Shown here piece after piece: positions 38,901 to 61,500 of a stretch of DNA of 64,000 bases (the first letter of the stretch is position 1; every line of letters starts with the position of its first letter). Position numbers and translations under genes: made by a program. The DNA is from Morinoia aosen. Its lineage: Eukaryota > Arthropoda > Malacostraca > Amphipoda > Talitridae. Under the pieces are notes generated by a model. It made no database searches, had not been told where the DNA came from, and was given only the letters and a program-made list of their open reading frames with translations. Where the stretch lies: NCBI GenBank assembly GCA_030386875.1, contig CM059569.1, positions 48,647,842 through 48,711,841 of the forward strand, read 5' to 3'.

Positions 38901-41900
38901 GAGCCCCTCTCCTTCACCGTGCCTAGAGTCAAGGTGCGTCCTGTATGATGCTTTCCCGGTACGTCTTTTGTGCTGCTTTAGGCTCTCATGTGGAGCCTAA
39001 ACTACGGCGTATGAGTGCGGTCAACTTTGATATTTCAGGGAGGAGATGTGCTCGATTGGGCTTTGTAATTTTCTCAAAACCCACCATGATGAGGTTGATG
39101 TGTGATAAGTTCACGCTCTGTGTAAGAGGGAAAGCGAAAAGTATGATGTAATATTCATAACTGTGGCTGGAAGCAAGCATTTTGCCATGTGAGATTGGTT
39201 AGTGTGATCTTCAAAGTGACTTATGGGATTCCCATTCATCTCGTATACTCATGATGTATTGTATGCGATAGATTGTTCTCAATCAAGTTTTATAAATTAA
39301 ACCTTTATGTCTCGAATTTAGGATTTTTAATTAGGATTTTAGGATTTTCATTCTAGGATTTTTAATTATTCACTTGCTTGCCATATTTGTTTTATTAAGT
39401 ATCTGCGGTGAAGTTCTCTTCTAGACAGCCTCAACCATCAACGTGCCTTATAAACACGAAGTGAGTAACTGCATTAAGCTTTCATCTTCAAGTTCATGAA
39501 TGTTGTTGATGCAGCTGTGTGAGGTGATGTGCCACTGACAAGCAACTATCTGAACTGATACAGTACTCGTTATTGCCTCCTGGCTTCAGCGGCTAAGAGG
39601 TGTAAAGTACGAGTATCATTCACTCTCTAGTGTAGCAGCCTCTAGCATATGTACTCATGTATTCATCTGTACAAAAAGTGTAATGATGACTGCTAAAGTT
39701 AATTCGTGTTAAATACCTTCAATTGATAATTGCTGGAGTTTCCATTGTTAATGTTGAACTGAAGCTCATCATTCGTGAACACAGAGAAGAACTCTCTTTT
39801 ATTCAAAAAGTTTAACTTCATCTCTAAATTTTTTCTAATTTCAGGAGCTTGCATGATTGTTCATTCTTACAATCTTCCATAGACTTGACTGTAGCAGTGT
39901 AAGTTGATATTAGGGTCGAGATGGTCTCTTGATTGTGTGTTCATTTTGCAGACAAGCCTGTTCCAAGACGACCTGTTCCCTCCGACAACAGTGACGTGGA
40001 AACCGCGCCTCTCTGCCGCCGAGTGGTTCTCTGGCGTGAACAGACAGCCGCTGCTGGTTTCCCTCCAGCCTGCCGACATGGCCACCTGTTAGTAGGCAGG
40101 CTGCTTGTGGAGTGGCACTTCCTTCCAACTTCAGTGCGGGACTTCCTTCCAACTTCTGTGCTGAACTTGCTTTCAATTTCTGTGTGGAACTTGCTTTCAA
40201 TTTCTGTGCGGGAATTGCTTTCAACTTCTGTGCGAGACTTTTCAACCTCTGCGTGGACCTTCCTGTCAACTTCTGTGTGCGCCATCGCGTATTTCACAGT
40301 TGACAGTCTTGACTTTGGTTGTATTCTTTGCTGACTTGACGAGGCTTGATTATTAAAGCATTTTTAAATGCATGCGCGTGCTGTTCTGTGAAGTTAACGC
40401 CGATGAAGTGCCTATGTGCCTATTTGGGCCTGCTCTTGTTCACAGTTAGTTGTTGTTAGTTTTATTCTTATTCTTCTTAGGATTTTATTCGATATTCCTC
40501 ATTGCATTGCTTCCTAATAGCTGCAATCTTGGTCTCGATTTGGGCGAGTTTATTTGACCAGCCTACATTTTGGTACGATCTTTTTCCCTAGAAGCTTGCT
40601 TCTTCTGTTACTTCCTTTAATTTAATACTTAGTTGTCTGTGTATTTTTAATAGAGCCTTCTCATTGTAGTGTATGATTTTGTGTCAAACTTGCCAAAATG
40701 ATCGCTCAAATATTGAGCGATATTGTTCAGATGAAACTAAATGTGAACATGAGCAAACCCAAAACAATTCAGGGCTTTGGACGAAAATAAAGTAATCATC
40801 AAAATTGAGTAACTGCCTTACATTGAAAAAGTTAAACATTGCTCAGCATAGAAGGAAAAATGTGTAAAAAAAACTTAACTGAAAATTGACAAGGGAATGA
40901 AAAAATGGAAGAATATGTGTGCAGTTAGAAGTTTGGAATCTATGCCTAACATTATACATATCTCATTAGAAGATATTTGCACTATATGTTGCTAGATGCT
41001 ACAATGTGAGCTGTAGGTTGAGGTAAAAATGACCATAAGAACAAGCGTGGTGGCTAGTCTTCGTGTTGCTATTTAAAGTCCGTGTCCTTAAGACTCCAAT
41101 CACGTACAAGTAAAGGCGTACAATGAAAATAGTAACTATAACAACCACTTGAGAATGCATTAATTGGATTTCGTGTTGCAATGAATAACTATAAGTCATT
41201 TGTGAACGCCTTAACTGGGTTTCGTGTTGCAGTGAAAAACTATTTTTGAGCGCATTAAATGCATCAATTGGGTTTGGTGTTGCAGTGAGCAGCAGCCGCG
41301 AGTCTCCCCCCAGCGAGAGCACACCCGTGCCTCCGCGTGGCGTGTCCCTGGACAGCAGCAGCATCGCCGCCCCAGAGAGCGTGGCGCGCTTCACCTCCGC
41401 CATACCCGAGCATGTCCGCCAGACGCAGAGCAAGGTCGGTCGCCCTAGTGCACCCATTCTCAGCCGGTCCTCCGTCATTGACCCCCTCGGATTTATGTAT
41501 TAAGGACATACGGCCGAAATTTACCTCAACCAGGGGTAAATAACCCTTGGTTGAGGGCCTCTGCTCTAGTGAAGGGCAAGCTTAGTCAGCTTTTGAGTAT
41601 CACTGGGGTACTAGCAACGTCAAAATTGACGGCACTGTTGTGAAGTTACTGCTGCATTTCAAACTTGAATATTTTCAAATGAACGGAGGAACCGTATCTA
41701 AGGTCACTTACCCTCGTGTCTCCTCGTACGTGTTACAGACAAGTGCTGCTGAACTAATTTTGCCTGTATATTTTCTTGCCTATATTTATACAATATAAAG
41801 ACCCATATTTTATATTATAGGTTGGGCTCTTGACTAGATTAGAATTTCATTTGCCGCCCGTTGACTAGATTAGAATTTTATTTGCCGCCCACACATCCAT

Positions 41901-43282: not shown

Positions 43283-46200
43283 GTCTTTCGCCACTCGAGG
43301 CTTGGTTGACCACGGCTAGTGAGCCCATCGAAGCGTGGCAGCCTGCGCGTCTTCTCGCTTCTGCGAATTTACAGTGCTCGCCGAGCTGTCATAGCCGCGT
43401 CTCATTTAGTTCCTGGTGCGCACATGAGTGCTGTTTTCCTGTTAGTGCTGCCGTCAGCGTAGCTGCATTCATCGGTAACTTCCATCCCGCCTACCACGTT
43501 CTTCTCCGCCCCTCATACTGCTACCTTCCGGCATGTTCGCTTCCTTGACTGTACGTGCGTCCGACTTGAAGCGACTCAGTGGTTCGGCAACGCTGCCGAA
43601 AACTCCTCCAATACCACTCTCCTGATAATTCGTGCCAGCTGTGGACCAAATCCTCTCCTTGCATGTTGGGTCGTTCTTTTTATCTGTGAACCAAACTTGC
43701 GCATTGCTCTGCTGCTCTTGAGAGAATTGTTAGAACTAATAGCGAAGCACTTCCCAGCAGTGCGAAGGCATTGGTGTAAGCAATAGCATTCCATTTTTAT
43801 GACTTACCTCCTTGGTGAAACATGAAATGTTGGCCCGCACACTTCAGTCGTGGCCTGCTGCATCAGGAGCCTTCTTTTATTTCCTGGTTTTAATTGTGTG
43901 TTTTATACGATATGGAATGGCCAATTTCAGTATTTTTGCGCTTATGCTTCAACATTTATTTAGTTTTTCTTTGGGTGTGATTATTTATTATATTCTTGCT
44001 GGGCTGTTATGCCTTTCAGAGTTCTACATTCAATTCTGACTTTTGTCGTAATTTGTGCAATAATAGTTTGTTTTCGATTATAAAATTGGGCTTATCAATT
44101 CTAGGCTTGCACTTGCGTCTGGACTTACTTAGAAACTTTCATTGTTTGCTTCAAACAGTTGGTCTCGTGCGTCAGCATCTCGCAACTTCATTGTGCCACT
44201 CTTTTTTATTATACGGTGGCACATCTGTCTTATCAGATAGATAGCTGTGCCATTTTTAATACCGTGCTTTTATATCATGAGTTACTGTAGTAGCTCTGTG
44301 TAGAAATGTAGACGATCAATTTGAAGAGTGAGAGGAAACAGCTTCATACTCCTAGCACAATACTCACGTAGAGGCAGCGTCCAAAGATATTCCATTAACT
44401 AAGTATTAGCTTTGATGTGAACTAGTGTTTGCAGGCGCGCAAATCGATCCCATGCGCTCTACGACAATACTCGTGTACATACAGTCAATCTGAGGTTTCT
44501 GCTTTGCTCTCCCATGCTCATTGTGCTGTGCTGATAAAGCAGTTGCTGTAAGTAGGTTGTGAAGCAAAATTCGTGAAACTCGAGTATAGACTGTGAAGTG
44601 CGTGCACAACATTTCCGCCCAACAGAGCCGTAACTGACCCTCTGAGATAGATATTCAGTGCACGTTCTTGTGAGGCGTCTTGCTAAAGTTTCCACTGTAA
44701 TTTCATTGGTGACCACTGACTTTAAATGATTTTGCAGAAGCAGAGGTTCTTTTCCAGAAGGCTCGAGCTGTGCCATGAGGCCCAGACCGGCACTCGTGCT
44801 GCGCCACGACCTGCACAATATCACTAGTCATAATTTCTTAGCCTTAGATCATAACTGTAAGGCGTTCCGCACACACAAGCATTTGGTCAATTCGGACAAT
44901 AAGGCTCTAGATTAAGACGGTCGCTTTTGTACCTCTTAAACTTAAACTTGAACAGGGAGATTCAGCCTAGCTGCAGGACTGCCATAGCGAGCGCCCCAAT
45001 CTCTTACACTTAGAGTGAAATCATTCACAAACTTTTCACTTGCATCATTCACGTGCGACTTGAAAGTAACTCTAAAGCTCTTCACTAAATTTTATTTAAC
45101 GATCGTTTAAATACAGAGATAATTATATGCTTGAAGTTTCTTTTTACTTTAAGTTTTTTAGCATTCATTTGCTGTGTTCTTTTATTTCTGGAGACTAGGA
45201 TACAAATATAGAGAACGCGTACTAGGTAGAACAATACGTGATTTCTTGCGTTACGAGTTGTGTGTGTCTCGCGTTGGCAACCTGTGGCGAGCCTGTTATA
45301 TTTTTATGGTTTTTATAACGGTCCTTTGAAGTCTTGATGCCGTTGCAGTCAGTCATGTGACATGACCGACGTTGGTGTCATTTGGAAGAGGCGCACTTCA
45401 CATTTCTAACGTAATCTTTGCGACACTTCCACAGTTATTCGGAGTGCTCCCAGTCTTGTGTACATTCCAGAATATACACCATTCCTCGTTTTCGTTTCCA
45501 CGAAACAAACATTGTGCATGGTCGTCTGTTTTTTGCGCTATTGCTCTGCTTGGCGTTCTTCCATGTAGCCATCGTCTTAATCAAACTAACCCTCGGAAAT
45601 GTGGGATTTAAATGGGATAATTCATTTATTTCATCCACCTAGCTGTGGCAAGAGTTTACTCATTGTATAGTAGTATTGTATTGTGTTCTGATGAGCACAC
45701 GATTCGGATCTGCAGTATTTACTACTTCGTGCTGAGATTATTTCATCGAGCCAAAGAATGGTCAGCCTTTTAGTCAGCGATAAGATTATATTTTAGTGTA
45801 CTTTCAGTTGATAATGGTTTTGAACGAGTTTTGCGAACAAAGCTTCTAGTTGTTTACCTAATTATCGTTTATCTGAATTTGAATAGAGAAGCATCTCTAG
45901 ACAACCTCCGTGGGCTCCAAATCGCCTCAACGCTTGTGGCATTTATGCGCTTCGTACAAGATAAATTTTTAGATGAATTCTCGTACTTGATTATTTTTAC
46001 ACTTCGTCGTTTAGTATGTTATTATTTAATAAGCACAGCTTAAGTAATAATTAATTCTAGCTGTAGCTACTGATATTTGTAGAATAATTTATCTAATTTT
46101 TCCTTGGATCAAAGCGATGACCCGAGGTGACTTTGCTTCTTGGACGAAATTGAACCAATTTCTGTATTTGATCATACCGAATGTTTTTAGATGTGCTGCA

Positions 46201-47450
46201 CTTGAGTGTTTCTCATTGAATTTACTGTTCGACTCGTGGCTTTGTAGTGCCATGCCCATGCCAAGCTCCGTACCTACTGTAATGAAGTAAGGAAGCAAGT
46301 GTTAGACAAGCCGCCAAACTTCGTAGCACCTGCCTGTCGCCTGGGCCGAGCTGGAGCTCAGAGGCGAGTACAAGCAGCGCACAGTTGCAAGACAAATATT
46401 AGCCATAGTCCAGCCCTAACGTAATTTTTACTTTTAACTTGCCCTAGTGTTGCATTTTATACTCGATCGTATGTTAAGCGCTATTTTTAAGATCGTCCGG
46501 CCTATTACAAGTATCGCTTTGCGCATTCCCATGGCATTTATTTATTTTTATTATTTAGGGTTGTTTCTGGAATGTCTCATTTGTGTTGTCAAGCCCGCAT
46601 TTGTAACTCTTGTCACCAGTAACTAAGTAGTTTTTGTAACAGAAGTGAACGTAAAGCTAACTGAATTTATTTTGCATTCCAATCTGCTCTAGCGCGCACT
46701 TTGCGGTGTGGGCTGACATTCACTTCTCGTGTCAGGAGTTGCCTGCCAACGTGTCCGTCTTCGTGATCCTATCAAAGACGAGATTTGGACTCATGTGAAC
46801 CCATATTTGGTTTTGGCTGCGTAGAACACTGTACCTTATTTCTCCTCTGAAAAGTCTTACGTCGTGATGGAGGCTGAAATTTTTTCTTGCTTTTTATGTA
46901 TCAAAGGTTTGGGAGAGGGGATATTTCATATTTCCAATTAGAGCACTGCTGTAAATGAATTCACGAAACAAGCGCATTAATTTAACTGCTTCGAATTGCC
47001 CTCTTAATTCGTCATCTATCTAGTTTTTATTGTTCAGGGTGATGAGCTTTCTAATTTATGCTGTCAATTCTCATTATGTCATCATTACAGTATCTAATTT
47101 CTTGAAGCAAAATATCGTTTCATTCATTTCGTTGACAGCAACAAGACATCGCTAAAATTTTGTAGTTTTCCTATCACAGTTGTGAAATTTCGTTCGATGT
47201 GCGACTGTTCCCACTTCTGTAGCCACCGAGTTAGCAAAGTTCTTCGTTTGTGGTTTTCGATTCTATTTGTTCAGATATTTACGTATAATCTTTGTTTCAA
47301 ATCTTGAATTAATGTTAGAGTTATTGCATTTATTTTTCTAATTTGAGCGTGCGGTTGCGATTAAATGGAGATACTGCCATTTGTATGTGCATTTTTGCTA
47401 TTTTTGCAAATATTAGTATGCTTATTATAATTTCCTTCATTGTCCTTCAC
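43283..47450 (+). other. pod1 3' UTR and downstream DNA, boundary unresolved
   Basis: No coding exon supported. The 3' UTR must start at 43283, but no single poly(A) signal stands out. Many short open frames here have no family features. Confidence 0.5.
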
Positions 47451-47454
47451 CAAC

Positions 47455-47680
47455 AAAGAGATATTGCCATCACTTTCACCAAAGATCTCAACATAATGAA
47501 CAGAAAAGTGTAAAGAACACGAGCAGAATTCTTCGCTTCGTAGCAAGAAACTTGGAACACAAGTCAAAATACATAATACTTCCCATCTATGTAGGACCTC
47601 ATCTAGAATACGCAATGCAACTCTGGTTCCACACCCTGAGATGAAATCTTAACAAAATCTAGAGAATTAAGCGTAGACTG
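47455..47680 (+). pseudogene. LINE reverse transcriptase fragment (CR1/L2-like)
   Basis: Frames on the plus strand read TFTKDLNIMNRKV, then ILRFVARN..KSKYIILPIY and PHLEYAMQLW, then IKRR. This is the familiar block E-K-D-L-G-V ... A-N-R-x-L-G-F-I ... S-K-x-x-I-L-P-L-Y-x-x-x-V-R-P-H-L-E-Y found after the RT core of CR1-like LINEs. Stops and frame changes show it is dead. A SINE is inserted at its right edge. Confidence 0.65.
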
Positions 47681-47682
47681 AA

Positions 47683-47935
47683 GTGGTCGCCGTGCTCGAG
47701 TGGCTAAGAGCGCGCGCTCTTCACGGAAAGGGTCGGCAGTTCAAATTCCGGTGATTCTTCCAGCTGGAATTAGGGAGCACTCTCCATAATTCCTCGCCCA
47801 ACTTAGGTGTCGGAAATGAGTACCGGCTTACCGATGGTAGCCGTCATTGCGTCCTTAAGTTATAAGGCATTTGAAGGACCAACGTACAAGATGATATATT
47901 TCAGGCTTAATTGGAATGAAAAAACATCGTTTCTG
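47683..47935 (+). mobile_element. tRNA-derived SINE with Ser/Leu-type head (family B)
   Basis: The head has an A-box-like TGCTCGAGTGGC (47693-47704) and a B-box-like AGTTCAAATTCC (47738-47749), the arrangement of class II tRNAs (Ser/Leu). Its body from AGGTGTCGGAAATGAGTACC to TCAGGCTTAATTGGAAT is the same as that of the family A SINE in opposite orientation at 48061-48411. Confidence 0.75.
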
Positions 47936-48060
47936 AAACCAGGTTCCTTAAAATATTTTTTCTTCTTTTAACTGCAGTAGCTTTGCTAAATCCCCGATTT
48001 TCAATTTTCATCCTTGTTTTCAAAAGATATGTATAAAAAGGGAACAAATGGTTAGCAAGT

Positions 48061-48411
48061 CAAACAAACAAACATCGGCATCTTTGGGATGCTTTATTTC
48101 CAATCAAGCCTGATACATATGGTCTTAAGCATTGGTTTTTCAAATGTCTTATAACTAACCCTGTATATAGGACACCATGACGGTTCCCCCGTAAAGCCGG
48201 TACCCATTTCCGACACCTGGGTTGAGTAGGGTATTGTGCTTGAGCTTTCCCTTATACCCAACGGGGAAAATCTCCGCGCCAGCGCCAGGATACGAACCCT
48301 CATCTCCAACATACAAGGCTGATCCCTTAACCACTGTACCACGGAGAGCACAGTGGTCTCCAACATACAAAGCTGATCCCTTAACCACTGTGCCACGGAG
48401 AGCACAGTCAA
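48061..48411 (-). mobile_element. tRNA-derived SINE with duplicated head (family A)
   Basis: Minus strand: A box TGGTACAGTGG matches the pol III consensus, and B box GGTTCGTATCC follows. The A-box half of the head is present twice, 54 bp apart (A boxes near 48330-48342 and 48384-48396). The body and the tail, with CAGGCTTGATTGGAAATAAA and CAAACAAACAAA, match the truncated copy at 1451-1735. Confidence 0.8.
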
Positions 48412-49592
48412 TGACTGTATAGCATTCTGATATATCAGTTCAATCTTCGAATGATGAACGCTAATGCTGAAGTGACTGGATTTACCAAAATGAAACTATA
48501 GTCAAGTGACAAGATTTACCAAAATAAAACGATGCTCGAGTGACAGCATTTACCAAAATGAAACGATGCTTCTGCGACTGGATTCACCAAAATGAAACGA
48601 GACGAGCGCCGGTACTGATTGAATATAAAAGTGCATGAATAACTGTTTGTATAATATCACCAGTAATTAGTTCTCGGATTCTGATATTCTCGGTCAATGA
48701 AGGACACTACTCTGAAAAGGAAATGCGTTCGCTGACTGATTAGTTTACTGGCTGATTACACTTTTGGTAAACCGCAGTCACCACACTCGAAGAAAATGTG
48801 TTTCATTTTAGTATCATGTTTTTTTTTGTTGTATTGTGAAGGCTAGCATATTAAGCTAGTCGAACCCCATTGCGGGCTGTGACCCAGGCTGCTGTGTCAA
48901 AATTTATGACCAAATACAATCAATGCTGCAGTTACTTGTTACTCACAATTATTAATTTCTGAACTGCATTACAGTTATCTAGTCAGAAAGCAAAGCGTGA
49001 AAAGAATTGTCTTGTTTTTCAAACTGTGCAAGGATTTTGAGATGAATTTTGAAGTCCCAAAAAGAAAAAAATGCGTTTGAGGAAAACTGAACTGCTTACA
49101 CAGACATACACATAAAAGAAACTCGATAAAGGTTGACATTTTTAAAATTTAAATGCTTCTTGTAAATTTAAAAATGAATACTTGCCAATTGTGAAACTCA
49201 GAATGACAACGCTTTCAAAAACATTAGAGATTTTTGCTATTGTTTGCAATTCCTAATAATTTATAAGTAATATTAACCTAAATGTGACTGAGTATTTTAC
49301 TGAACGAATTATGGCAACATCAGAAGATCTTGTTTACGTTCCGAATGTGCTAGATGTCGTGGATTGTACTCTGACGAAGTGGAAAATTTACGCTATTTTT
49401 GAGTCGTGTTCGTGCTGAAATTGAATTAATTGTGAGTAAAAATATTGAATGAGTTAGTGCAGAAAAATATATATGGTATTTTTTGTCTACTTGGAAGTTG
49501 AAATGCTTCCCGTGATCGTAACTATCGAGGATAAAAATGACGTAACCAATGGAGGTCGAATAAGTGTGAAACCTACATTCATATATTTGGTT
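48412..49592. other. Intergenic, nothing recognised apart from short repeats
   Basis: TTTACCAAAATGAAACGATG-like units recur about every 37-38 bp between 48480 and 48605 (four copies); otherwise no feature. Confidence 0.55.
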
Positions 49593-50126
49593 GGTAAATG
49601 TAAAGGACTTGACCATAATCGATTTTCCACTCTTTGATCAATAAAGATTGTTGATGAGACCAAAATAAACAAGTTTTCTTCAATGCACTTTCCGGCGGAA
49701 ATAAGTATTTTAAAAGTTATGGCATTAAATGAGTTACCGTAACTCCAGTGTTTGAGGCGGGGAAAAATACACCGCGCGGTCCGACGTGAAAGTAAACAGG
49801 CGTTCCCGCGCGCCAACCAAGCCGACGAAGAGCAAACCCCCTATTACAAACGTAAAGAGGTTGGGTCGTGAGGGGTAGCAACAGTTCTTTTAGTGAAAAC
49901 TATAAAACTAAAAGAACTGTGGCTACCCCTCACGACCCAACCTCTTTACGTTTGTAATAGGGTGATGCACACAGGAGTTCCGGTAACTCATTTAATGCCA
50001 TAACTTTTAAAATACTCATTTCCGCCGGAAAGTGCATTGAAGAAAAATTGTTTATTTTGGTCTGATCAACAATCTTTCTTGATCAAAAAGTGGAAAATCG
50101 ATTATGGTCAAGTCCTTTACATTTAC
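49593..50126. mobile_element. Foldback element E1 (534 bp) with inner hairpin
   Basis: Ends GGTAAATG...CATTTACC with terminal inverted repeats of about 150 bp (49593-49747 and 49980-50126, containing ACTTGACCATAATCGATTTT and CTTTCCGGCGGAAAT). The interior has a GC-rich unique block and a 56-bp-stem hairpin (49839-49962). It is an inverted near-copy of E2. No matching target duplication was found, so it may have arisen by inverted duplication. Confidence 0.8.
49839..49962. repeat. Hairpin H1 (56-bp stems)
   Basis: Arms 49839-49894 and 49907-49962, starting CCCTATTACAAACGTAAAGA, one mismatch seen, 12-base AT-rich loop. The same arm sequence forms H3 and the outside of H2. Confidence 0.9.
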
Positions 50127-50203
50127 CGAAATTTGCTATTGAGTTCTTCTCAAGTACTTGTGATTTAATGATATACAAGTTTTATATTAGTATCTCAAGA
50201 AGC

Positions 50204-51429
50204 GGTAAATCTGAAGGACATGACAGTTGTCGATTTTGCAAATTGTAATGGCTAAACATTGTTAATGACACCAAAATAAACAAGTTTTCTTCTATGCACT
50301 TTTCGTCTCTAGTGAGTATTTTATTAGTTATAGCGGTAAATGACTTACCTCAACTCCAGTCTTCGAAGCGGAAAGGAATTCCTTGATCGAGTTGTATGGC
50401 AATACTGCAATGGCGTCTCGCTTCCAGCGCTCTGTCTTGAAAGACGAAACCAAACCTACCGCTATACCTCGTTAAATACTCATTTGACGAAAAAAGTGTA
50501 TAGAAGAAAAGTTGGTCAATGTGAAGTTTAATGCAATCACGGAAAATAATAATGCCGATCCCAGGAATCACTAAAGAAACACATTTCAGAACGTTTTACA
50601 TGAATGACATTCTGCTCGCTGATGCGTTTTTTTCGAATAATTGAACTTTGAAGTTGGCCTTGGCGCCAAAGGAAGCGAGCGCGTAAACGGAATTTAATTA
50701 ATAACGGAAGCTATTACAAACGTAAAGAGGTTGGGTCGTGAGGGGGAGGCACAGTTCTTCTAGTGAAAATTATAAATAAAGCTTCTAACCCACCCATTAG
50801 GGTGACGACCGCAATCTTGTTGACATCGGGTCCAAAATGGCGGCGCCCATGGTGGTCGCCATGTTAGACCCGATGTAAACAAGATTGCGGTCGTCACCCT
50901 AATGGGTGGGTTAGAAGCTTTTTTTATAATTTTCACTAGAAGAACTGTGCCTCCCCCTCACGACCCAACCTCTTTACGTTTGTAAAAGGGGGTTAGCTTC
51001 CGTTTTTAATTAAATTACGCTCGCTTCTTTTGGCGCGGGAAGGCCAACTTCAAAGTTCAATAATTCGAAAATAAAGCATCAGCAAGCAGAATGTAGTTCA
51101 TGTAAAACATTCTTAAATACGTTCCTTTAGTGATTGTTTAGAATATAATTATTAATTTCTGTGATTGCATTAAACTTCACATTGACCGAAAAGTTTATTT
51201 CGATGTTATTACCATGTTTCAAGCAACAAAAATTCAAAAATCGATGAGTAGCTGTTTATTCGAGCGCATTTGTCATCAATGACAAAACTAAACCTACCGC
51301 TATAAATCGGAAAATACTCATTTGAGATGAAAAGTGCATAGAAGAAAACTTGTTTATTTTGATTCAATTAATTAGGTTCAGGCAACAAAAAGGTCAAAAT
51401 TGACAACTGTCATCTCCTTCAGATTTACC
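50204..51429. mobile_element. Foldback element C (1,226 bp), central member
   Basis: Ends GGTAAATCTGAAGGA...TCCTTCAGATTTACC with a perfect 8-bp target duplication CAAGAAGC (50196-50203, 51430-51437). Long diverged inverted arms run inward (for example AAACCTACCGCTATA near both ends) to hairpin H2 at the centre. Its TIR resembles that of E1/E2 (GGTAAAT, AGGAC, TCGATTTT), so these belong to one superfamily. No transposase frame. Confidence 0.8.
50709..50997. repeat. Hairpin H2, two-tier nested palindrome
   Basis: Outer arms AGCTATTACAAACGTAAAGA share the H1/H3 sequence. Nested inside is a second inverted repeat with CATTAGGGTGACGACCGCAA and GACATCGGGTC, closing on AAAATGGCGGCGCCCATGG / GGTCGCCATG near 50833-50862. 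Total span about 290 bp with only a short loop. Confidence 0.88.
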
Positions 51430-51760
51430 CAAGAAGCTTTCTGAAGAACTTGTTGCAGTGGTGCAAGCTGTTGTAAATGCAATGAAAGTTGACTTATACA
51501 TGCACTTGGAGGAAATTTGACAATGAAAACAGCTGTTGCAGTCAACTCATTTGAGATATGTGGCCATATTTTTTATTACGTATGTGTAGTATTCAACTTG
51601 ACATCACAGAATTAAGTGCAAACCTATTTTTCTCAAAGTTGTATATGTTATGTGGAGGAAATTAGGGACTGTCATATGAATAATTTATTGGTAATGTTAG
51701 TGGTGAATAAGCCCAAAGAGTAATGTATTAACATTTTGACTCACAGGTTAAACTGAAGTT

Positions 51761-52295
51761 GGTAAATGTTGAGGACTTGACCATAATCGATTTTCCACTT
51801 TTTGATCAACAAAGATTGTTGATCAGACCAAAATAAACAAGTTTTCTTCAATGCACTTTCCGGCGGAAATGAGTATTTTAAAAGTTATGGCGTTGAATGA
51901 GTTACCGGAACTCCAGTGTGCATCACCCTATTACAAACGTAAAGAGGTTGGGTCGTGAGGGGTAGCCACAGTTCTTTTAGTTTTATAGTTTTCACTAAAA
52001 GAACTGTTGCTACCCCTCACGACCCAACCTCTTTACGTTTGTAATAGGGGGTTTGCTCTTCGTCGGCTTGGTTGGCGCGCGGGAACGCCTGTTTACTTTC
52101 ACGTCGGACCGCGCGGTGTATTTTTCCCCGCCTCAAACACTGGAGTTACGGTAACTCATTTAATGCCATAACTTTTAAAATACTTCTTTCCGCCGGAAAG
52201 TGCATTGAAGAAAACTTGTTTATTTTGGTCTCCTCAACAATCTTTATTGATCAAAGAGTGGAAAATCGATTATGGTCAAGTCCTCAACATTTACC
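51761..52295. mobile_element. Foldback element E2 (535 bp) with inner hairpin
   Basis: Inverted counterpart of E1, flanked by a perfect 8-bp target duplication CTGAAGTT (51753-51760, 52296-52303). Contains hairpin H3. An open frame of 75 codons (52072-52299) exists on plus and its mirror in E1 on minus; this reflects the copied sequence, not a gene. Confidence 0.85.
51926..52049. repeat. Hairpin H3 (56-bp stems)
   Basis: Mirror of H1 at the symmetric place in E2 (both pairs are centred on 50944). Arms CCCTATTACAAACGTAAAGA and reverse. Confidence 0.9.
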
Positions 52296-52680
52296 CTGAA
52301 GTTTAACATTCAGCTCAAATTTAAAGTCAATTGTAAGCAATGTTTAAAATAGCAAATGTTAGCTGGATTGTGCTTTCATTTAGTTTTGAATAAGCATTTA
52401 TTAAAATTCAGGTTATGACCACTGGTTGGTCAGCAGCATTATGTAAATTCCCTTTGTGTACCACTTGTGTATGTTGCAGTCAAAGTGTTAAGTGATTAGG
52501 GAAATCTAGGGTCAATATTGAATTTAATGTTGTCAACGAATTTAATAATTTTGTAGGTATAGATAGGTAATATAGTCGATTTTAAGACGTTTTATACGAA
52601 TAACAATGTGCCCGGAAATGCTTAGCTTTGGAGATATAGGATAAATAACGCCAGGTAAGAATAGCATTAACGGCAGTTTC

Positions 52681-52725
52681 GATATGGCTCTTCCGGCGTT
52701 TTGCGGACGCGGACCACGCCAAGGT
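52681..52725 (+). promoter_or_regulatory. FAU: Possible FAU transcription start (TOP-like tract)
   Basis: GGCTCTTCCGGCGTTTTGCG lies 330 bp before the coding start in a GC-rich patch. CTCTTCC after the start C is typical of ribosomal-protein mRNAs. A donor such as AAG-gttttt or ATG-gttaag follows within 60 bases and would join to the acceptor at 53011-53012. Inferred. Confidence 0.35.
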
Positions 52726-53018
52726 TTTTGGCGGGAGTCATCGGCCTCGATATGGTTAAGTTAAATTAAGATATTTTAGGCGCACTTGATACTTAACTAA
52801 ATTAACTTTACCAAACCTAACCTTACCTATCGTTACGTCAGAACCGGATTTCTGCTTATTTAAGTGGATGGTGATTTTAGTTTATAGTGATGTTAGGAAA
52901 TTGTTAGCCAGTTTGTCAATGCCAAATCTAGTATATCTGCCTTGAGGATGCAGTCCCACTGCAAAAATGAAATCTATAAACTTAGTTTAATTGGAATTAT
53001 TTTCCTGTGCAGAGCATC

Positions 53019-53132
53019 ATGCAGCTTTTTGTGCGTGGCAGTTCTCTGCATGTCTACAATGCTCCAGAGGGAGCCCTTCTTGCTGATGTGAAGGCCTTCC
53101 TGAGCTCAGTTGAAGGTGCTGAGCAGGAGGAA
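53019..53132 (+). CDS. FAU: FAU coding exon 1
   Basis: 38 codons from ATG to GAGGAA, donor gtaagt, phase 0. The exon itself begins at 53013 with six 5' UTR bases. Confidence 0.96.
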
Positions 53133-56100
53133 GTAAGTTGTGGGCTGGTAACTCCTTGGCTATAGCTCACTTGTTGCAAGTTCTCCTGGGATCAGGTTAG
53201 GTTATTTAATGTTGGGGAATTTTTCACGGTTCCACTCAGCTTAACGTTGACTTTGTCCAATGAATTTCTATGGGTCATGCTACAACCTAATAATACTCTT
53301 AGTTCATTTATGTGGAGCATGCTTCTTCCATTTCTGTCTGCTCATTAGGATAGTTATAATGACCATATCTGTGATACAAGTTTCACCAGTGCACAAGTAC
53401 AAAAATATTTTTTATTACTGGTACTGTTAGGATGGAGATATTTGTCATTCACATCTGGAAAATTTATTCAAGAAAGGTAATGAATCTAGTCATTTTTGAT
53501 GGGCCATGCTCACTTGTCTAAATAATGAGTCTACCTTCATTTGACTATGCTAATGAGATAACTGTATTTTTTAACATCTTTTGGGAATATTGGTTCACCA
53601 ATTTTTAAAAACATCTCTATTAGCAGGCTTTTACTTTGTTTACATGAGCACTTATCACACATCTTGCTAGAGATGAATGTTACTGTCTTGAATTGTGTTG
53701 CATGCATGAAATTGTTGTCAGTTGTGGTAAGATGTGTACATTTAGAAAGTTTGAGATAGTTTTAGAACATCATTAACTTGGTTTGATGACAGGATTTTCA
53801 TTGTGCAGAAAATGCTGAGTGGGGTTTTCCACACAATGAAAATCCTGCTATCAAACCAAGTGAATGATGTTCTAAAACTATCTCAAGCTTTCTAAGTGTT
53901 TACATCTTACCACAACGTACAAAAATTTCACACATGCAACACAATTCAAGATATGTATGAAACCCAATTCTTTTCTTATTTCACACAGTGCCAGTGATGT
54001 TCTAAAAGTGATGCAAGATGGCAGACTCCTTTGTCTCAGACTGGAATTAACAAAGTGTTTCAGAGCTTATTTTACCTCTTGATGTTGATAGTGTGTCATG
54101 GAAGAAGTGGATTGACTTCCATAGGTTATGATGGTTTTTCACTTTGGCTCCTTTGAGAGTTGATTTACAGATGAAATGGTCTATTGGGGGAATTTCCCTG
54201 AATATAAATAGAAAGAGATGATTAATTTTTATATTGATAGAATATTATTAAACTTTAGAATCCTATAAATATGAAATAGGTCGTTAATGCTTCAGTTTTG
54301 TTTTTGTATGCAACATCTCAAATTTTAAGCTCTAAATAATTGCATTATTCTTTAAAGGGCAAAAATATTTCTCTTTTGTCAAGTATTAATATTTTCAGTT
54401 CTTTCCTTTTGGTAGATTTGAATTTATTTTGGTGAAATTGGAAAAGTGTGGCGGGGAAATCCAAAAAAAAAAAAAAATAATAATAATAATAATTAGAATA
54501 GTGTTGAATATCTGAGAATGGAGTTGAGACAACTCTAGTAGAAGTTTAATGTCCCTCAATATTTAAAGTTGATAATACTAAACACAAGGGATTTATTTTA
54601 TCACAATGCACTCACAATTCTCTTGGCTAAGAATAATCATATTTTTAAAATATTTTGGCAGTGTTAATGAAATTTTGTCGATTTAGGATTGTGTAAAACT
54701 TATCCATTGAGTGATTGTCTTAAGATTGAACGATGTGTTAGTCTTTGTCTTACTAGATATATGTAGACAAGCTGCTTATAATAAAAAGGGTAACTTGAAC
54801 TTTTCAAGACAAACGCATAAGCTTTAAATGCATACATATTAATGAAAGAGCGCTGGCAATTGAATATTGCGTCAAGTAGAATAAGTGATCGATGAGCAAC
54901 TATTTCAGTTTGAGAAACTCGTAGTGTGAAAACTGTTTTTCTGTGTGTATGCTCGAGTTTATATTTTCTGTGTGCATGATTCTGTTCGGGATACCACTAG
55001 TGATGTAACATTCTGTGTACATGATTCTGTTCAGGATACCACTAGTGATGTAACAATGGTATTGGATTTGAAATGTTTTTCAGATCCGTCTTTTTGCCAA
55101 TGGCGCCCCTCTCGAGGATGAGGCTATGCCCCTGAACTCCCTTACCACCGACACATTAGACTGCAATGTTGCTCTTCTCGGAGGTGAGTGCAGACTTCGT
55201 CTAGTGTTGAGTCTGTCGACAATGTGTCCCAGTGTTACTGTTTTGTTTCAACTCACGATTTCATCTCTTTCCTCGGTTAAACTTGCAAGAGTCACTTATA
55301 ATTTTTGTATCATGTTATGTCAATCATAAAAGTGGTGTGTTAAGAGGTTAGTGCTGCGATAGTGGCAAAATTCTGAAGTATGGAAGGTAGGTGACTGAAA
55401 CTTGTAATGCGTATGTTAATCCAAATTTTGAGCATATTTTGTGCATACATTATTTTTGAGTTTCGCAAAAAATAATTATTAAATGAAACCTCTAATTTTG
55501 AGACCCTTTTTGCAAGTCTAATAACTCAGGAAATATTCAACACACAAGCTTGATTTTAGTCTCATTTGACGCAAGAATAAAATATCTAAATCTGGCTGTT
55601 AGTTCTGAATTTTAAATTTGAAACTAAATTTGAGAACTGAATTTGTCAGTTCTCAGATCTGAATTTCAAAAGTTGATAAGTTATTTAAATGTATTTTTGT
55701 TCCAAAATTTTCATAAAAATCCTGCTGACACACAACTTATTTCGCCAATGTAACACGACTTTGAAAACAAAATTGTAAAAACTTGCAAATTAATTCTAGT
55801 TCGTACGTTGAATAGTGCAAAAGTTATTAAAATTTCAATGTCCGTATGTTATAATCATAGAAAAAGCACATGAACGGCTTTTTCAAGAGCGCAAGAACGG
55901 GTCAGCCAATTGTTCTCAAACTTTCACAGGATACAATTGAGACTATTGAAAATCGGAAATTTTGTCATTTCCCGTAGCGTTATCCCCTTCAGTGGTGGCG
56001 TATTTTTTCCTGTGCCTCCTAAGATGAACGGGAGTTATTTTATAGGTTGGTACTTGGAAACTAATATTAGCTGAAACATTTCTTTCGAAAATTCTTGTTA

Positions 56101-56567
56101 TAGTGTTTTTAAGTTGAGCCAAACGTTCATTAGCCACTCAGCCGAACGATGAACCTACTAGTAAGGTGAAAAATTTAATGATAGACGACGTTAATAACGA
56201 TTTCTAAGAACGACAGTAAATGAAAATTAACTCGATTTCAAATGAATTTAGTTTAAGAAAGGGTCTAATGATTGCTTGTATGCTGAATTAATAGTTGTAG
56301 TGTTCCCGTTGCTGGACACATATGCTGAGAACAATGAATGGATACAGTAAGCGCATTATATTAACTCCCGCTTGTTGTTGTGCAGGTAAGGTGCACGGTT
56401 CGCTGTCTCGTGCCGGTAAGGTGAAGGGTCAGACTCCCAAAGTGGACAAGAAGGAGAAGAAGAAGAGTAAGACTGGTCGGGCCAAGCGCCGCATTCAATA
56501 CAACAGGCGCTTTGTGACGGTCGTCCAGAGCTTCGGCAAGAAGCGTGGCCCTAACAGCAACTCCTAA
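53019..56567 (+). CDS. FAU: FAU: ubiquitin-like FUBI fused to ribosomal protein S30
   Basis: Coding exons 53019-53132, 55084-55183 and 56386-56567, phases 0 then 1, total 131 residues. Residues 1-72 are the ubiquitin-like FUBI part ([14 protein letters not shown] ... [13 protein letters not shown] ... NVALLGG) ending in the Gly-Gly processing site. Residues 73-131 are eS30 ([19 protein letters not shown] ... [13 protein letters not shown] ... KKRGPNSNS), 59 residues as in other animals. The precursor is cleaved after Gly-Gly and S30 joins the 40S subunit. The 5' acceptor tgtgcag-AGCATC at 53011-53012 shows a non-coding first exon upstream. AATAAA follows the stop at 56571. Confidence 0.97.
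53680..53953. repeat. Foldback (about 125-bp arms) in FAU intron 1
   Basis: Arms about 53680-53806 and 53830-53953 pair through TTGAATTGTGTTGCATG, GTTGTGGTAAGATG, GATAGTTTTAGAACATCAT and CTTGGTTTGAT(G/A)(A/G)CAGGATT, with a loop of about 24 bases (CAGAAAATGCTGAGTGGGGT). No ORF. Could be a MITE or a local inverted duplication. Confidence 0.8.
54465..54497. repeat. A-run plus (TAA)n microsatellite
   Basis: An A-run interrupted by T then several TAA units. It could be the tail of an old retroelement, but nothing next to it is recognisable. Confidence 0.6.
54965..55058 (+). repeat. 46-bp tandem duplication before FAU exon 2
   Basis: TTCTGTGT(G/A)CATGATTCTGTTC followed by GGATACCACTAGTGATGTAA occurs twice (54965 and 55011), ending 25 bp before the exon 2 acceptor. 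Confidence 0.85.
55084..55183 (+). CDS. FAU: FAU coding exon 2
   Basis: Starts [15 protein letters not shown] and ends within the second Gly of the Gly-Gly processing site. Acceptor tttcag, donor gtgagt, phase 1. Confidence 0.96.
55184..56385. other. FAU intron 2, nothing recognised
   Basis: AT-rich. No repeat family member identified. Confidence 0.55.
56386..56567 (+). CDS. FAU: FAU coding exon 3 (S30 and stop)
   Basis: Encodes all of S30 in one exon, basic and Lys-rich, stop TAA at 56565-56567. Acceptor gtgcag. The exon boundary coincides with the processing site. Confidence 0.97.
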
Positions 56568-56570
56568 GTC

Positions 56571-56576
56571 AATAAA
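56571..56576 (+). promoter_or_regulatory. FAU: FAU poly(A) signal AATAAA
   Basis: AATAAA four bases after the stop, so the 3' UTR is very short, as is common for ribosomal-protein mRNAs. Confidence 0.85.
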
Positions 56577-56745
56577 TTGTTGCAATGAGTAAATGAGTTT
56601 GTGATTACCATATATTGTGAAATCCGGACTCTTCTCTTAGAGTGTCGTAAATGCGGAAGTTCAATTAAACATTGGCCGAGTAAGTAATGAAACGTAGGAT
56701 CTCGTAGTAATGGCATATAACACACACGTGAACTTGTTGCGAATT

Positions 56746-57242
56746 TTTATTCAACTGCAAGGATTGAAGTCATTAAGTAGGATGCTTCGTAGTACAGTTG
56801 CGACACTTCACACGAGTACTATAAAAACGGACTCTAAGGAATGACATCACTCCAACACAAAGCCACGGAATGTACAAATAATTAGCACTGGCTCTGATTT
56901 TTACCAGTCTAGCAGGTTCAACGAAGACCAGGGTGCTTTAATGGAAACGTTATTAATAACTTTGAGCGTGACGCTGTTCAACAGACACCCGGCATGTTCT
57001 TCGCCGAGGAATCCAAGTGATGTAATTGACGTCTTCAGTTTCCACAAATTACTCGGGTCACGCTCAGAATGGATTGAGGGGAAACGGGCATACATGAACA
57101 TGACTACCATATCAATTATAACAAGTTTGAAGACTCCTAGTATCGAAGCCAACTCCCTGAAAGCGACGAGAAGACCTAGTGTGAATTGTAGATTAGATGG
57201 GTCAGTTAAATCCTCCCTAACTAGTGTTCCAAAGTAAAGCAC
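56746..57242 (-). CDS. Possible terminal exon of an unrecognised minus-strand gene
   Basis: Open minus-strand frame 57242-56901 (113 codons, preceded by a stop, so its true 5' end would be a splice acceptor such as cactag near 57222). It has one strongly hydrophobic stretch (FTLGLLVAFRELASILGVF, then LVIIDMVVMFMYA) and a soluble end. About 150 bp past its stop AATAAA occurs on the minus strand (56751-56746). The order of frame, stop and poly(A) signal and its convergence with FAU suggest a gene end; I do not recognise the family and found no upstream exon. Confidence 0.35.
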
Positions 57243-57989
57243 TTAACTGTACGGGGCTCGGTGAGCGGGGAACATATCGACATTCCTAGGCAAAACCCCT
57301 ACTTCGTTTTAACCTTACAGAGCTGTGTACTAATCTTCAAGGATTTAGTACCTGAACACAAATTTAAAAAATTTAGAGTGCAGAGAGGTTTCTCCATAAT
57401 TCCTACAATAGCTTTTCGAAATCTAAAAATTTGACTACACATGACAGCAACTGATGGAGCAATGGTGCCACCGCGATGAAATCAAAATACAGTATTGAAT
57501 TAATTATACGCCAAGTTGGAGTAGTACAAAGTTTACCAGCGCTTCGACAACTTAGGACATACTGCGCCGAATTCACAGCAGTAGGCTTATCTTATTTGCC
57601 ACAACAAGTCATCGCATAGTTATTTAAACATGGCATCCGGATCGAATACCAGTTAAAATTAAACTAAAAATGATATTCGCTTCTCCGGTACATTCCGTAG
57701 TTTTACGGCCACTGTTCGATTTCATGGTTTCAAATGCGGTATCTAAAAATAGTATACTGTTCTTTAGATCACCATTACGCAGTTCAGCACGTCTCGACGA
57801 GTGCGATAGTCACCAATAAACGAAGTTGTCAGAATTGTAGACCTTTACGTACTAGCAGCTAATAACACATAGAAAAAATGCGTTGTAATACATACATTCA
57901 TTAAATTTTTGAAAAGATTTCGCACGGGGTAAGGAATGTTCTTGGGGCTCTCATATCGAAAGCGCATCCTTCTGGCTCCACAAGCATTT
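57243..57989. other. Intergenic or intronic DNA, nothing recognised
   Basis: If the preceding frame is a real last exon, this stretch would be its intron. No coding match that I can support. The left part of the older LINE's 3' UTR may reach into it. Confidence 0.4.
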
Positions 57990-58192
57990 TAATCCGTATA
58001 GCGTCCACGCTGCGGCCGTAAAGGCCAGGGGAAACTCGGACGCCGCGCATCTACGTACTTTGAGCACTCAGCTAAGAGGTGCTCGACCGTCAGAGTGGTG
58101 TGACACAGATCGCAGAACGGCTGGGGGCGCCGCTGTATGAGGTAGCCATGAGTCGACCTTGTGTGGCCAATGCGAAGGCGGCACAGTGTAGT
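57990..58192 (-). pseudogene. 3' scrap of an older related LINE (C-terminal zinc region)
   Basis: The minus strand reads CRLRIGHTRSTHGYLIQRRP, then FCDLCHTTLTVEHLLAEC, then a stop at 57990-57992. It is homologous to residues 1145-1184 of the intact LINE ORF2 next door but clearly a different subfamily. It starts abruptly at a (TAC)n run. Confidence 0.8.
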
Positions 58193-58419
58193 AGTAGTAG
58201 TAGTAACATAGGTTTGCTAGCGCTTCAGTTATTCAAACTATATCGCACCGGAGGTCACATAATTTAATTAGTATCAGACTTTCCGATTTACCACGTAAGA
58301 TGAACATCAACATTATTTGAACATCAAAAATTATATGATCGTAATTATAGTTACAACTCAAGAGTATAATTGTCTCCCCATTGAAATCTTGTACATACAA
58401 CAGTACATTCGAACACACT

Positions 58420-58523
58420 GGGCAGCCAAACCCCGTAGGGGGTTTCAGCTGCCCACCCATTATGGCCGGACGCCTTACCCACGCTGAAACCCCCCGAGGT
58501 ACCAACGCAGCGCGCCCGGCCAT
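58420..58523 (-). ncRNA. Structured 3' UTR element of the LINE
   Basis: GGGCAGC...GCTGCCC closes a hairpin at 58420-58454 and ATGGCCGG...CCGGCCAT closes one at 58462-58523. GGGGGTTTCAGC (58438-58449) is perfectly complementary to GCTGAAACCCCC (58483-58494), so a third, competing pairing exists. Plausibly a signal recognised by the LINE RT; inferred. Confidence 0.5.
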
Positions 58524-58598
58524 ATTGCAGTTTCTTCATCTACAATCTTCCAATACGATATCACGCTTGGTTACAGTGCATTACTGCGTGGCTTCATG

Positions 58599-61500
58599 TT
58601 AAATCTCAGAAAATAGCTTGCACCTCTCCAGGAACAGCTGCAACGCTGCTGCGTTAAAGCCTGAGCGCTCGTTTTCCCTGAGTATTCCAATCAACACATC
58701 CTCCGTGCAGCCACGAAGACTTGGGAAACACACATTGCGTATAGCAGAGTATCTTGGACATTCAACGAGAAAATGCACAACAGTCAGGGGAACACGGCAC
58801 CGTTCGCATTGCGGCTGCGGCTGTCGCTCCATGAGGTGGCCGTGCGTTATGCGAGTATGGCCGATGCGGAGGCGGCAGAGTATCACCTCCATTCGACGAG
58901 CACGGCAGTTAGAAGATGACCACTCTCGGACAGTGGGCTTAATGTTTCTCAATTTATTGTCAGTTGTGGCCGTCCAGTTTCGCTGCCACAGATCCTTCAC
59001 CGCCGCCTTGATGCGAGGATAAAAATCACGGGAAGGGACCATCAAATTTAGTGTTCTCTCACTTGACCCAGCAGCTTGCTTAGCTTCCCGGTCTGCTCTC
59101 TCATTGCCAGATATCCCCACATGCGTGGGCACCCAGCATATAACGACACTCTTCCGTTCATTTACGAACTGTGCCAGCTTTGTGACGATCTCCGCAATAA
59201 TGGGGTGGGTACTGTTGTACATCTGAGCAGCATCTATTACGCTTTTCGAGTCAACGAAGATGGTGAAAGAATGACAATCGTGCTCCTCGATCAGCTGTAG
59301 CGCTTCCATCACACCATACAGCTCCGCTGAGAAAATTGAGGTCTCTGGGAGCAGTCTCCTAGCCCTCACTATTTCCCCGGACACAGCGGCACATCCCACA
59401 GCGTCTCCTGTCTTAGAGCCGTCTGTATAAATCTTCACAGAGTTTGCGTGTTTCTCCAGTATATGCTCCATGAAAATTCCCTTCAGGATGTTAGCCGGCA
59501 TTGACTCCTTTTTCGGCACTCGACATCCAGGGCAGAAGCTCTCCACGGGGACACGCCATGTCGGAGAGCAGTCAAACAGCACAGGTAGCACTCTCATGGG
59601 TCCCAGCTGCATGGCGGCCGTCAGCGCAGGATAGTTCATTGATGATGGCAGACAATACGGGAAAGGCAGATGTCGTCCGGAAGGCGCGTGCACGCTTCTC
59701 CATGTAGGAGACAGGGGCAGCTGATCTAGACGAGCCAGGTACTGTAGGCTCAGCTGTACACGGCGGAGCCAAAGAGGAGGTTCTCCACTCTCCACACACA
59801 AACTGACTGACGGGGAGGTCCGAAAGGCGCCAGTGCAAAGCCTTATGGCCGTGTGGTGCACCGGATCAAGCACTGACAACGAAGTTTCCCTTGCATACTG
59901 GTATACAGTGCATCCATAATCCAGCTTACTTCTTATCAGGGTTCTGTATAGGCGCAGCAATGTTACACGGTCAGCTCCCCACGCCAGGCCTGATACACAT
60001 TTCAACAGGTTCATTCTTCTGTTGCAATCAGACTTCAGCGCGGCCAGATGGGGTTTCCACGATAGCTTGTCATCAATAGTTAGGCCCAGAAATTTGGCAC
60101 TATGAGCAAAGTTTATCGGTACTCCCCGGAGAAGTAACTGTGGAGGGTCCCGTCGGCAGCGTCCCTGAAAATGCAGGGCCACAGTCTTCCCAGTGGAGAA
60201 TACGAAACCATTTTCAGTCGCCCAGTCATTCACACCGTTGATAGCCAACTGCACTCTGCGCGCCAGCGCAGGCAAATACGCTGATGAAGTGTAAATCATG
60301 AAGTCATCAACGTACAATGACGACGAGACATCGGCTGGCAGTGTGGAGGTGATGTCATTGACGGCCAGAGAGAAGAGGGTGCAGCTCAGCACACTACCCT
60401 GGGGTAGGCCCTCCTGCTGGGTTTGCCAAGGCGACAATGTGGCTCCCACTTTTACACGAAAACTCCTCTCCTGGAGGAACCGCTGGACAAAGAAAGCCAA
60501 ATTGCCCCGAAGGCCACATCCATAAACACGTTGGAGGAGCCCATGTCTCCAAACGGTATCATATGCTTTGTGCAGGTCGAAGAAGACACACAAGCTCTGC
60601 TTGCGGGCGGCAATATTCTGAACCAGATGACTCTGCAGTCTCACGACAGCATCCGTGGTCCCCCGAAGCTGCCTGAAGCCGAACTGGGCAGGATTCAGAA
60701 TTTCTTCTGCTTCCAGCCATCGTACAAGGCGAACGTTTACAATCCTCTCCAATAGCTTGCACACACAACTCGTTAGGGCGATAGGTCGGTAGCTGTCTGT
60801 ACGGGTGGCCGGTTTCTGAGGTTTGGCAAAGGCAAGGATTGTTGCAGTGCGCCAGTCCCTTGGAAATACGTGGGTCGTCCAGACCTTATTGAATATATGA
60901 AGCAGCTGGCGTAAGGCTGATGAATGCATCCTCTTGAGCATCTGATAGTGAATCCCATCGGGGCCTGGTGCAGTATTATTGCAAGTTCTCAAGGTGCGGT
61001 AGATTTCAAGAAAGGTGATAGGCTCGTTGTACGAGAAAACTGTTTCCGTTGCAAAGTCTGGTTTATGTTGTTCTCTTTGGCGTTTTTGTGCTCGGAAAGC
61101 AGGTGGATACTGGGCTTCGCTACTATTATGCGCGAAACTATCAGCCAGCGCCACCGCCACCCGCTGAGGATCCGCCGTGAGTATGCCGTCCACTTCTAAA
61201 CAAGGCCTGCCACAGCTGTATTTTCCCTTCATCTTACCCACACGTTGCCAAATTTTGGTCATAGGTGTGTCGGTATTTAGGCTGCTAACATATTTGCGCC
61301 ACGAGCTCCGCCTAGCAGCGTCCTTGATGAATTGGGCCTTCGCTCTTGCTCGCTTATATGCAATAATATCTGCCAGCTCGCCGGTACGTCTAGAGCGTCT
61401 CAGGGCTTGCCGCCGCTCATAGTTTGCCACAGCGCAATCATTATTCCACCAAGGAACACGGTACTTTGGTGCACCACCGCGTGACATCGGGATAGCAGCA

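What the first reader, a model, noticed from the sequence alone, without database searches (positions are those of the whole stretch)
49593..52303. Cluster of three foldback transposons making a 2.7-kb nested palindrome
E1 (49593-50126), C (50204-51429) and E2 (51761-52295) all end in GGTAAAT/ATTTACC. C and E2 have perfect 8-bp target duplications (CAAGAAGC, CTGAAGTT). E1 and E2 are mirror images around 50944, and each carries the same 56-bp-stem hairpin. No transposase is visible. The termini do not match any superfamily I can name with confidence (8-bp duplications fit hAT, P/Galileo or Merlin). Such DNA can form cruciforms, and a transcript through it would be a long dsRNA feeding endo-siRNA.
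Basis: seen in the sequence. Interest (0 to 1): 0.75.

Follow-up and report, generated by a model that had tools for sequence, protein, structure and literature searches.

The report
Four nested non-autonomous Merlin transposons
The 2.7-kb nested palindrome is a pile-up of four short "Merlin" jumping elements that lack their own enzyme, some of them inserted recently, and the same genome carries enzyme-coding relatives with matching ends, so it is a known kind of mobile DNA rather than a new structure.

Summary
The repeats are real and lie where described. Element C is composite: a 674-bp foldback (F, 50514-51187, own 8-bp duplication GAAAAGTT) sits inside an older 544-bp element (D), so there are four elements, not three. 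The superfamily is Merlin (IS1016-like). The window's own genome gave 101 matches to the Merlin transposase domain. Of 20 loci fetched, 5 have a transposase enclosed by E- or D-type inverted ends with 7-8/8 target duplications, and 2 more by G-type (GGTCAATATTG) ends. E aligns to both ends of three of them, with 1.4-1.6 kb of transposase region missing at the hairpin loop. A ~99%-identical sister block 875 kb away on the same contig has E1 and an uninterrupted D, but unfilled sites for F and E2, and its own extra E copy. F and E2 are therefore recent, separate insertions, not one palindrome. E1 lacks a target duplication, only partly explained by a 590-bp difference beside it. No transposase element with F's own ends was found. 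One curious point: a 76-bp module nearly identical in otherwise diverged Merlin lineages.

The parts
49593..50127 (+). E1: 535-bp non-autonomous Merlin foldback (E family), no target duplication
   Evidence: E-family copies genome-wide; present in sister block
49593..49751 (+). E1 left terminal inverted repeat (159 bp, GGTAAATG...)
   Evidence: I2
49969..50127 (+). E1 right terminal inverted repeat
   Evidence: I2
49839..49962 (+). E1 internal hairpin, 56-bp stem, made of two inverted copies of the subterminal module; its loop is where the transposase region is missing relative to longer relatives
50196..50203 (+). Left 8-bp target duplication of D (CAAGAAGC)
50204..50513 (+). D, left part: older non-autonomous Merlin element (544 bp without F); its last 8 bp are the left copy of F's target duplication
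   Evidence: uninterrupted D in sister block
50514..51187 (+). F: 674-bp foldback (GGTCAATG...CATTGACC) inserted in D, TSD GAAAAGTT at 50506-50513 and 51188-51195
   Evidence: unfilled site in sister block
51188..51429 (+). D, right part (first 8 bp are F's right target duplication)
51430..51437 (+). Right 8-bp target duplication of D (CAAGAAGC)
51753..51760 (+). Left 8-bp target duplication of E2 (CTGAAGTT)
51761..52295 (-). E2: second E-family element, opposite orientation to E1
   Evidence: empty site in sister block
52296..52303 (+). Right 8-bp target duplication of E2 (CTGAAGTT)
52510..52862 (+). Truncated relic with G-type Merlin end (GGTCAATATTGAA...); no exact ATATTGACC right end in the window

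Best explanation
The cluster is four non-autonomous elements of the Merlin (IS1016-like) superfamily, produced by separate insertions. E-type elements look like internal-deletion derivatives of longer Merlin elements: the two long inverted ends and the two inverted subterminal modules were kept and the transposase segment between them was lost, which leaves a foldback with an inner hairpin. Inferred mechanism: Merlin transposase made elsewhere in the genome recognises the GG-starting ends, cuts the element out and inserts it with an 8-bp target duplication at A/T-rich, weakly palindromic sites. Order of events: D and E1 first; then the locus was duplicated, or its two haplotypes split; then F entered D and E2 inserted on the window copy, and another E inserted into E1 on the sister copy. 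Shown: anatomy, target duplications, unfilled sites, and transposase-bearing elements with E- and D-type ends. Inferred: catalysis, the deletion origin of E, and F's membership (GG end, 8-bp duplication, shared module). Not shown: which copy supplies active enzyme now, and F's own transposase-bearing partner.
For: PF12762 (DDE_Tnp_IS1595) has 101 matches in the own genome, 122 of 122 candidates scored. Of 20 loci fetched, 13 hold E-, D- or F-like DNA. Five have a transposase enclosed by E- or D-type ends: L087, L088, L089, L092 with TSD 8/8, L084 with 7/8. Two have G-type ends: L083 (8/8, one end GGCCAAT) and L091 (7/8). E-, D- and G-type rows fall in separate clades in a tree of 14 proteins (labels of L082, L085 and L090 rest on one end each, that of L086 on its near-identity to L085). 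E 1-314 and 315-535 match the two ends of L089, L084 and L092, leaving out 1381, 1392 and 1605 bp. The DDE residues (placed by motif, recalled) are kept in the long open frames of L088, L084, L091 and L083. Merlin's published features (GG ends, 24-462-bp TIRs, 8- or 9-bp TSDs), from passages of PMC8101967, all fit. The sister block has CTGAAGTT once at the E2 site and D without F.
Against: Ends of the transposase elements match E at only about 75-87%, so the immediate parent of E was not found. No fetched transposase element has F's ends; one locus, L079, holds an F-like stretch including one F end (82%, 2368-2640) some 0.7 kb from a transposase frame, not seen to enclose it. The two E-type elements with 8/8 duplications (L092, L089) have lost the catalytic glutamate. 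At the F site the window lacks 3 bp (GTT) that the sister has, so that unfilled site is not perfectly precise. E1's missing duplication is only partly explained. 81 of 101 transposase matches were not examined for ends.
Confidence: 0.95

Rival explanations
1. A hAT, P/Galileo or other 8-bp-duplication superfamily (for example KDZ/Zisupton) mobilises these elements.
For: 8-bp duplications and long inverted repeats are compatible with several superfamilies; the ends alone are not diagnostic.
Against: Merlin transposases sit inside elements with E- and D-type ends and 7-8/8 duplications. KDZ: 0 matches, but its control genomes were silent too, so that result is weak. hAT and Mutator families were not searched; the P-superfamily request did not complete.
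Confidence: 0.02
2. The whole 2.7-kb symmetric block is one unit that arose by a palindromic (inverted) duplication or replication-fork event.
For: E1 and E2 are 98% complementary and flank a palindromic centre.
Against: F and E2 each have their own duplication, and the sister block has E1 and D but neither F nor E2. No inverted repeat of 20 nt or more joins the DNA between E1 and D to that between D and E2.
Confidence: 0.01
3. E1 lacks a duplication because it is the product of ectopic recombination between two E copies.
For: Only the window's E1, among 42 copies in the fetched loci, lacks a duplication; its sister copy lacks one too (AATTGGTT / GTAGCTTT), so the loss seems to predate the split.
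Against: No reciprocal product: CATTTACCATTTGGTT occurs once, at the end of an old D-like cluster on another contig, and none of 16 GAAATTTGGGTAAATG sites lies near it. These exact patterns used the window's flanks; the sister's versions (AATTGGTT, GTAGCTTT) were not searched. A simple flank deletion is as good: the sister has 590 bp beside E1's right end that the window lacks.
Confidence: 0.3

Closest known systems
Merlin superfamily (IS1016/IS1595-related DNA transposons)
   Same: DDE_Tnp_IS1595 transposase in elements with E- and D-type ends, 5'-GG termini, inverted repeats within the published 24-462 bp range, 8-bp duplications.
   Different: Window elements show no transposase frame and fold back over most of their length; inner hairpin from inverted subterminal modules. 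In my five searches naming Merlin no listed title or start of abstract describes a Merlin foldback family; the library is open-access only and I read passages of just three papers.
MITEs
   Same: Short, many near-identical copies, no coding capacity, target duplications.
   Different: Inverted repeats are longer (159 bp) than in many MITEs (recalled).
Foldback / Galileo-type elements of Drosophila
   Same: Long inverted repeats that make the element fold back; passages of PMC4168063 describe Galileo as foldback-like in structure but classed in the P superfamily by its transposase.
   Different: Different transposase superfamily (Merlin, not P); Galileo duplications are mostly 7 bp.

Membership tests
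Merlin superfamily | DDE_Tnp_IS1595 transposase encoded by elements sharing the ends | tested here: met
   met for E- and D-type ends (5 of 20 loci). For F's exact ends no such element was among the 20 fetched.
Merlin superfamily | Terminal 5'-GG | tested here: met
   E, D, F start GGTAAAT or GGTCAAT; 2 of 42 E copies have a changed first base at one end (L006, L027)
Merlin superfamily | Terminal inverted repeats of 24-462 bp | tested here: met
   E 159 nt, D 135 nt (81%), F outer arms 153 nt (84%); range from PMC8101967 passages
Merlin superfamily | 8- or 9-bp target duplication | tested here: met
   E: 40 of 42 copies 8/8, one 7/8, one none; F: 32 of 35 rows 7-8/8, the window's F counted twice; empty site for E2 exact
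Merlin superfamily | Mobilised by Merlin transposase | not testable with these tools
   needs a binding or transposition assay
Foldback (FB)/Galileo as a family | P-superfamily or FB-specific transposase | not tested
   the one request for a P-superfamily domain (PF21787) did not complete; the Merlin link makes it unlikely
KDZ/Zisupton | KDZ transposase | tested here: inconclusive
   0 matches, control silent in all 14 genomes

The most novel reading that the evidence does not exclude
A 76-bp subterminal module (E 239-314) behaves like an exchangeable cassette among Merlin lineages. The window's E module is 91-99% identical to its copies in two G-type elements, and the transposase-bearing E-type and G-type elements match in it at 87-97%, although their transposases share only 38-49% of residues and their coding DNA matches weakly (74-76% over 67-95 bp). 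Yet it was not found in the two D-type elements examined, whose coding DNA is 77-79% identical to E-type. It would have spread by recombination between nested copies, or be held fixed as a promoter or transposase-binding region, and would be the building block that turns Merlin deletion derivatives into foldbacks.
Probability: 0.35. Interest if true: 0.5.

Novelty: new member of a known kind. Interest (0 to 1): 0.3.

Why it matters
It names the superfamily of abundant foldback families in this genome. It also gives unfilled-site evidence that some inserted very recently (10 mismatches and 6 gap positions against 1626 compared bases of DNA shared by the two copies), about 0.7 kb upstream of the first coding exon of a probable FAU/RPS30 gene. 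Such crowding is common around E copies here: 19 of 33 independent E loci have another E/D/F-like stretch of at least 80 bp within 1 kb. The shared module offers a testable route from full-length Merlin elements to foldback derivatives.

Tried and rejected
Rejected: a single palindromic unit (sister block); KDZ/Zisupton (no hit, weak control). Insertion-site preference of E for its own family is not supported: a loose test had 10 of 41 E flank pairs spanning E/D/F-like DNA (near-duplicate loci included), a stricter one 5 of 33 independent loci, and coverage of flanks by E/D/F-like sequence is 19-26% at every distance from 8 to 1000 bp with no peak at the insertion point, so the crowding looks regional. 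No random-genome background could be obtained for that. Reciprocal recombination partner for E1: not found. E1 duplication with a 3-bp offset (6 of 8): as good a match arises in 6% of random pairs. In one search I noted E1 as a rearrangement breakpoint because the right flanks differed; searches corrected this to a 590-bp difference next to E1. Rfam: no match in the window at gathering scores. A third copy of the E1 left flank: none reported (2 of 2 candidates scored).

Full report
What is in the sequence. E1 (49593-50127) and E2 (51761-52295) are 535-bp inverted copies of one element, 98% complementary, each with 159-bp terminal inverted repeats and an inner 56-bp-stem hairpin. E1 folds far better than its shuffles (-242.8 against -55.2 kcal/mol, 0 of 100 shuffles as good). 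A genome search with C showed that its middle (query 311-984) is a separate, abundant element, while its outer parts are contiguous elsewhere (8567 first-look candidates, 40 scored). The middle element, F (50514-51187, GGTCAATG...CATTGACC), has its own duplication GAAAAGTT and interrupts D (544 bp when F and one duplication copy are left out). Duplications: D CAAGAAGC, F GAAAAGTT, E2 CTGAAGTT, E1 none.

Copies in the genome. The window lies in G000:C14:48647842-48711841, an unnamed 1.99-Gb eukaryote assembly of 29 contigs. E gave 1703 first-look candidates, of which 40 were scored, and these were copies close to E1. In the 40 fetched loci there are 42 full-length copies: 40 with 8/8 duplications, one 7/8, and the window's E1 with 1/8 (L009/L016/L030, L015/L017/L019/L021 and L038/L039 are near-identical loci). 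Of 43 copies aligned (the 42 plus E2), 40 differ from the majority sequence at 1-6 positions of 535, E2 at 9 and two at 45-46; the sample is biased to copies like E1. The 36 distinct duplications show a weak palindromic preference (A at position 3 in 27, T at position 6 in 21). F gave 35 rows, 32 with 7-8/8 duplications; the window's own F is counted twice and a few loci are near-duplicates; the exceptions were L052 and L055, which are duplicates of each other, and a partial 77% copy.

The mobilising family. PF12762, the domain of Merlin and IS1595 transposases, has 101 matches in this genome. Twenty loci were fetched; 13 hold E-, D- or F-like DNA. Five have a transposase enclosed by E- or D-type GGTAAAT... 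ends: L087, L088, L089 and L092 with 8/8 duplications, L084 with 7/8. Two have G-type GGTCAATATTG... ends: L083 (8/8, one end GGCCAAT) and L091 (7/8). Open frames of 361-381 aa, stop to stop, match PF12762 above cut-off in L092, L088, L091 and L084. By motif (recalled), L088, L084, L091 and L083 keep the DDE residues; L092 and L089 have lost the glutamate. Rows grouped by end type fall into separate clades (E 6 rows, support 94/92; D 3 rows, 100/98; G 2 rows, 99/99; labels of L082, L085 and L090 rest on one end, that of L086 on its likeness to L085). PMC8101967 (abstract and outline, passages, and the first of two parts of section 10) gives Merlin as GG-ended, inverted repeats 24-462 bp, 8- or 9-bp duplications, and present in a wide range of animals. 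All of these fit. For F the fit rests on its GG ends, duplications and shared module: no fetched transposase element has F's ends, and L079 has an F-like stretch with one F end near, not around, a transposase frame.

How a Merlin element becomes a foldback. E 1-314 and 315-535 match the two ends of L089, L084 and L092, with 1381, 1392 and 1605 bp between those ends absent from E; identity of the end stretches is about 75-87%. The join is the loop of the inner hairpin, whose stems are inverted copies of a module that flanks the transposase region in these three elements. The deletion origin is an inference from this collinearity. D resembles the ends of L088 (92%) and lacks the module.

The sister block. 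The E1 left flank has one other reported match, C14:47821917 (98%). The two blocks are collinear at about 99% wherever tested: window 1-5000, 38000-49592 and 52304-58189, offset about 875 kb, same orientation. Window 5001-37999 and 58501-64000 were not tested. In the sister, E1 is present but split by another E copy with duplication CAAAATAA; D is whole; the E2 site reads ...AAACTGAAGTTTAACATTC... with CTGAAGTT once; and 590 bp lie to the right of E1 that the window lacks. The F site is also unfilled, although the window lacks 3 bp there. Shared DNA around the cluster shows 10 mismatches in 1626 bases, plus 6 gap positions. The match also stops near window 58189, where a repeat, presumably the LINE, begins in the window, and about 7.7 kb near window 40521-40533 is extra in the sister. 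This is either a recent segmental duplication or two haplotypes left in one scaffold; other near-identical pairs 0.7-1.6 Mb apart on one contig (L038/L039, L009/L030, L052/L055) fit either. In both cases F and E2 arrived after the split (precise excision from the sister is the less likely alternative), and the cluster is not one palindromic event.

E1's missing duplication. The sister copy lacks one too (AATTGGTT / GTAGCTTT), so the loss seems older than the split, and the window then differs by 590 bp on the right. No reciprocal recombination product was found using the window's flanks. A flank deletion and an exchange between E copies both remain open.

Surroundings. Pfam gave no ubiquitin-like match for the first exon alone. 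The cluster so sits 0.7-3.4 kb upstream of the first of these exons. E/D/F-like DNA crowds around E copies: 19 of 33 independent loci have another stretch within 1 kb, with even coverage and no peak at the insertion point.

What stays open. F's transposase-bearing partner; whether any enzyme is active now; haplotype or duplication; and why a 76-bp module is nearly identical in lineages whose transposases are 38-49% identical. The cruciform and dsRNA ideas were not tested. Papers: seven searches, of which five named Merlin; no listed title or start of abstract describes a Merlin foldback family. Passages were read in PMC8101967, PMC2884549 and PMC4168063; only open-access texts were covered.

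Noticed in passing
window 1-58189 (tested at 1-5000, 38000-49592, 52304-58189): A collinear ~99% sister block lies about 875 kb away on the same contig: recent large duplication or unpurged haplotype.
   Followed up: partly
window 53019-56564: Probable FAU (ubiquitin-like/ribosomal protein S30) gene on the + strand, just downstream of the cluster; three coding exons, the middle one a weak match.
   Followed up: partly
window 53686-53951: Another inverted repeat with 127-nt arms 12 nt apart (89% complementary), without Merlin-type ends by eye; also in the sister block.
   Followed up: no
window 58187-62333: LINE with an open 1244-aa frame (58599-62333, minus strand; endonuclease, reverse transcriptase, RNase H). 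The sister block's match stops near 58189, and copies of that edge elsewhere are 99-100% identical, so it looks recently active.
   Followed up: partly
window 14323-20106: Open 1927-aa gag-pol frame of an LTR-type retroelement (protease, reverse transcriptase, RNase H, integrase). Described only.
   Followed up: no
window 24512-26621 and 29094-30289: Tandem arrays: 29-bp unit x 73 (97% matches) and 48-bp unit x 25 (95% matches).
   Followed up: no
L073, L074, L076, L080 (G000:C27:58.5-62.0 Mb): IS1595-type transposase genes that look bacterial by eye, one beside an HD-domain frame (L080), inside a eukaryote scaffold: bacterial insert or contamination?
   Followed up: no
L015, L017, L019, L021: The same E copy inside a 2.2-kb near-identical stretch on four contigs: E has hitch-hiked in another repeat.
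   Followed up: partly
L072 1400-3050: Frames resembling a pogo-like transposase (by eye, no search) inside an old D/F cluster.
   Followed up: no
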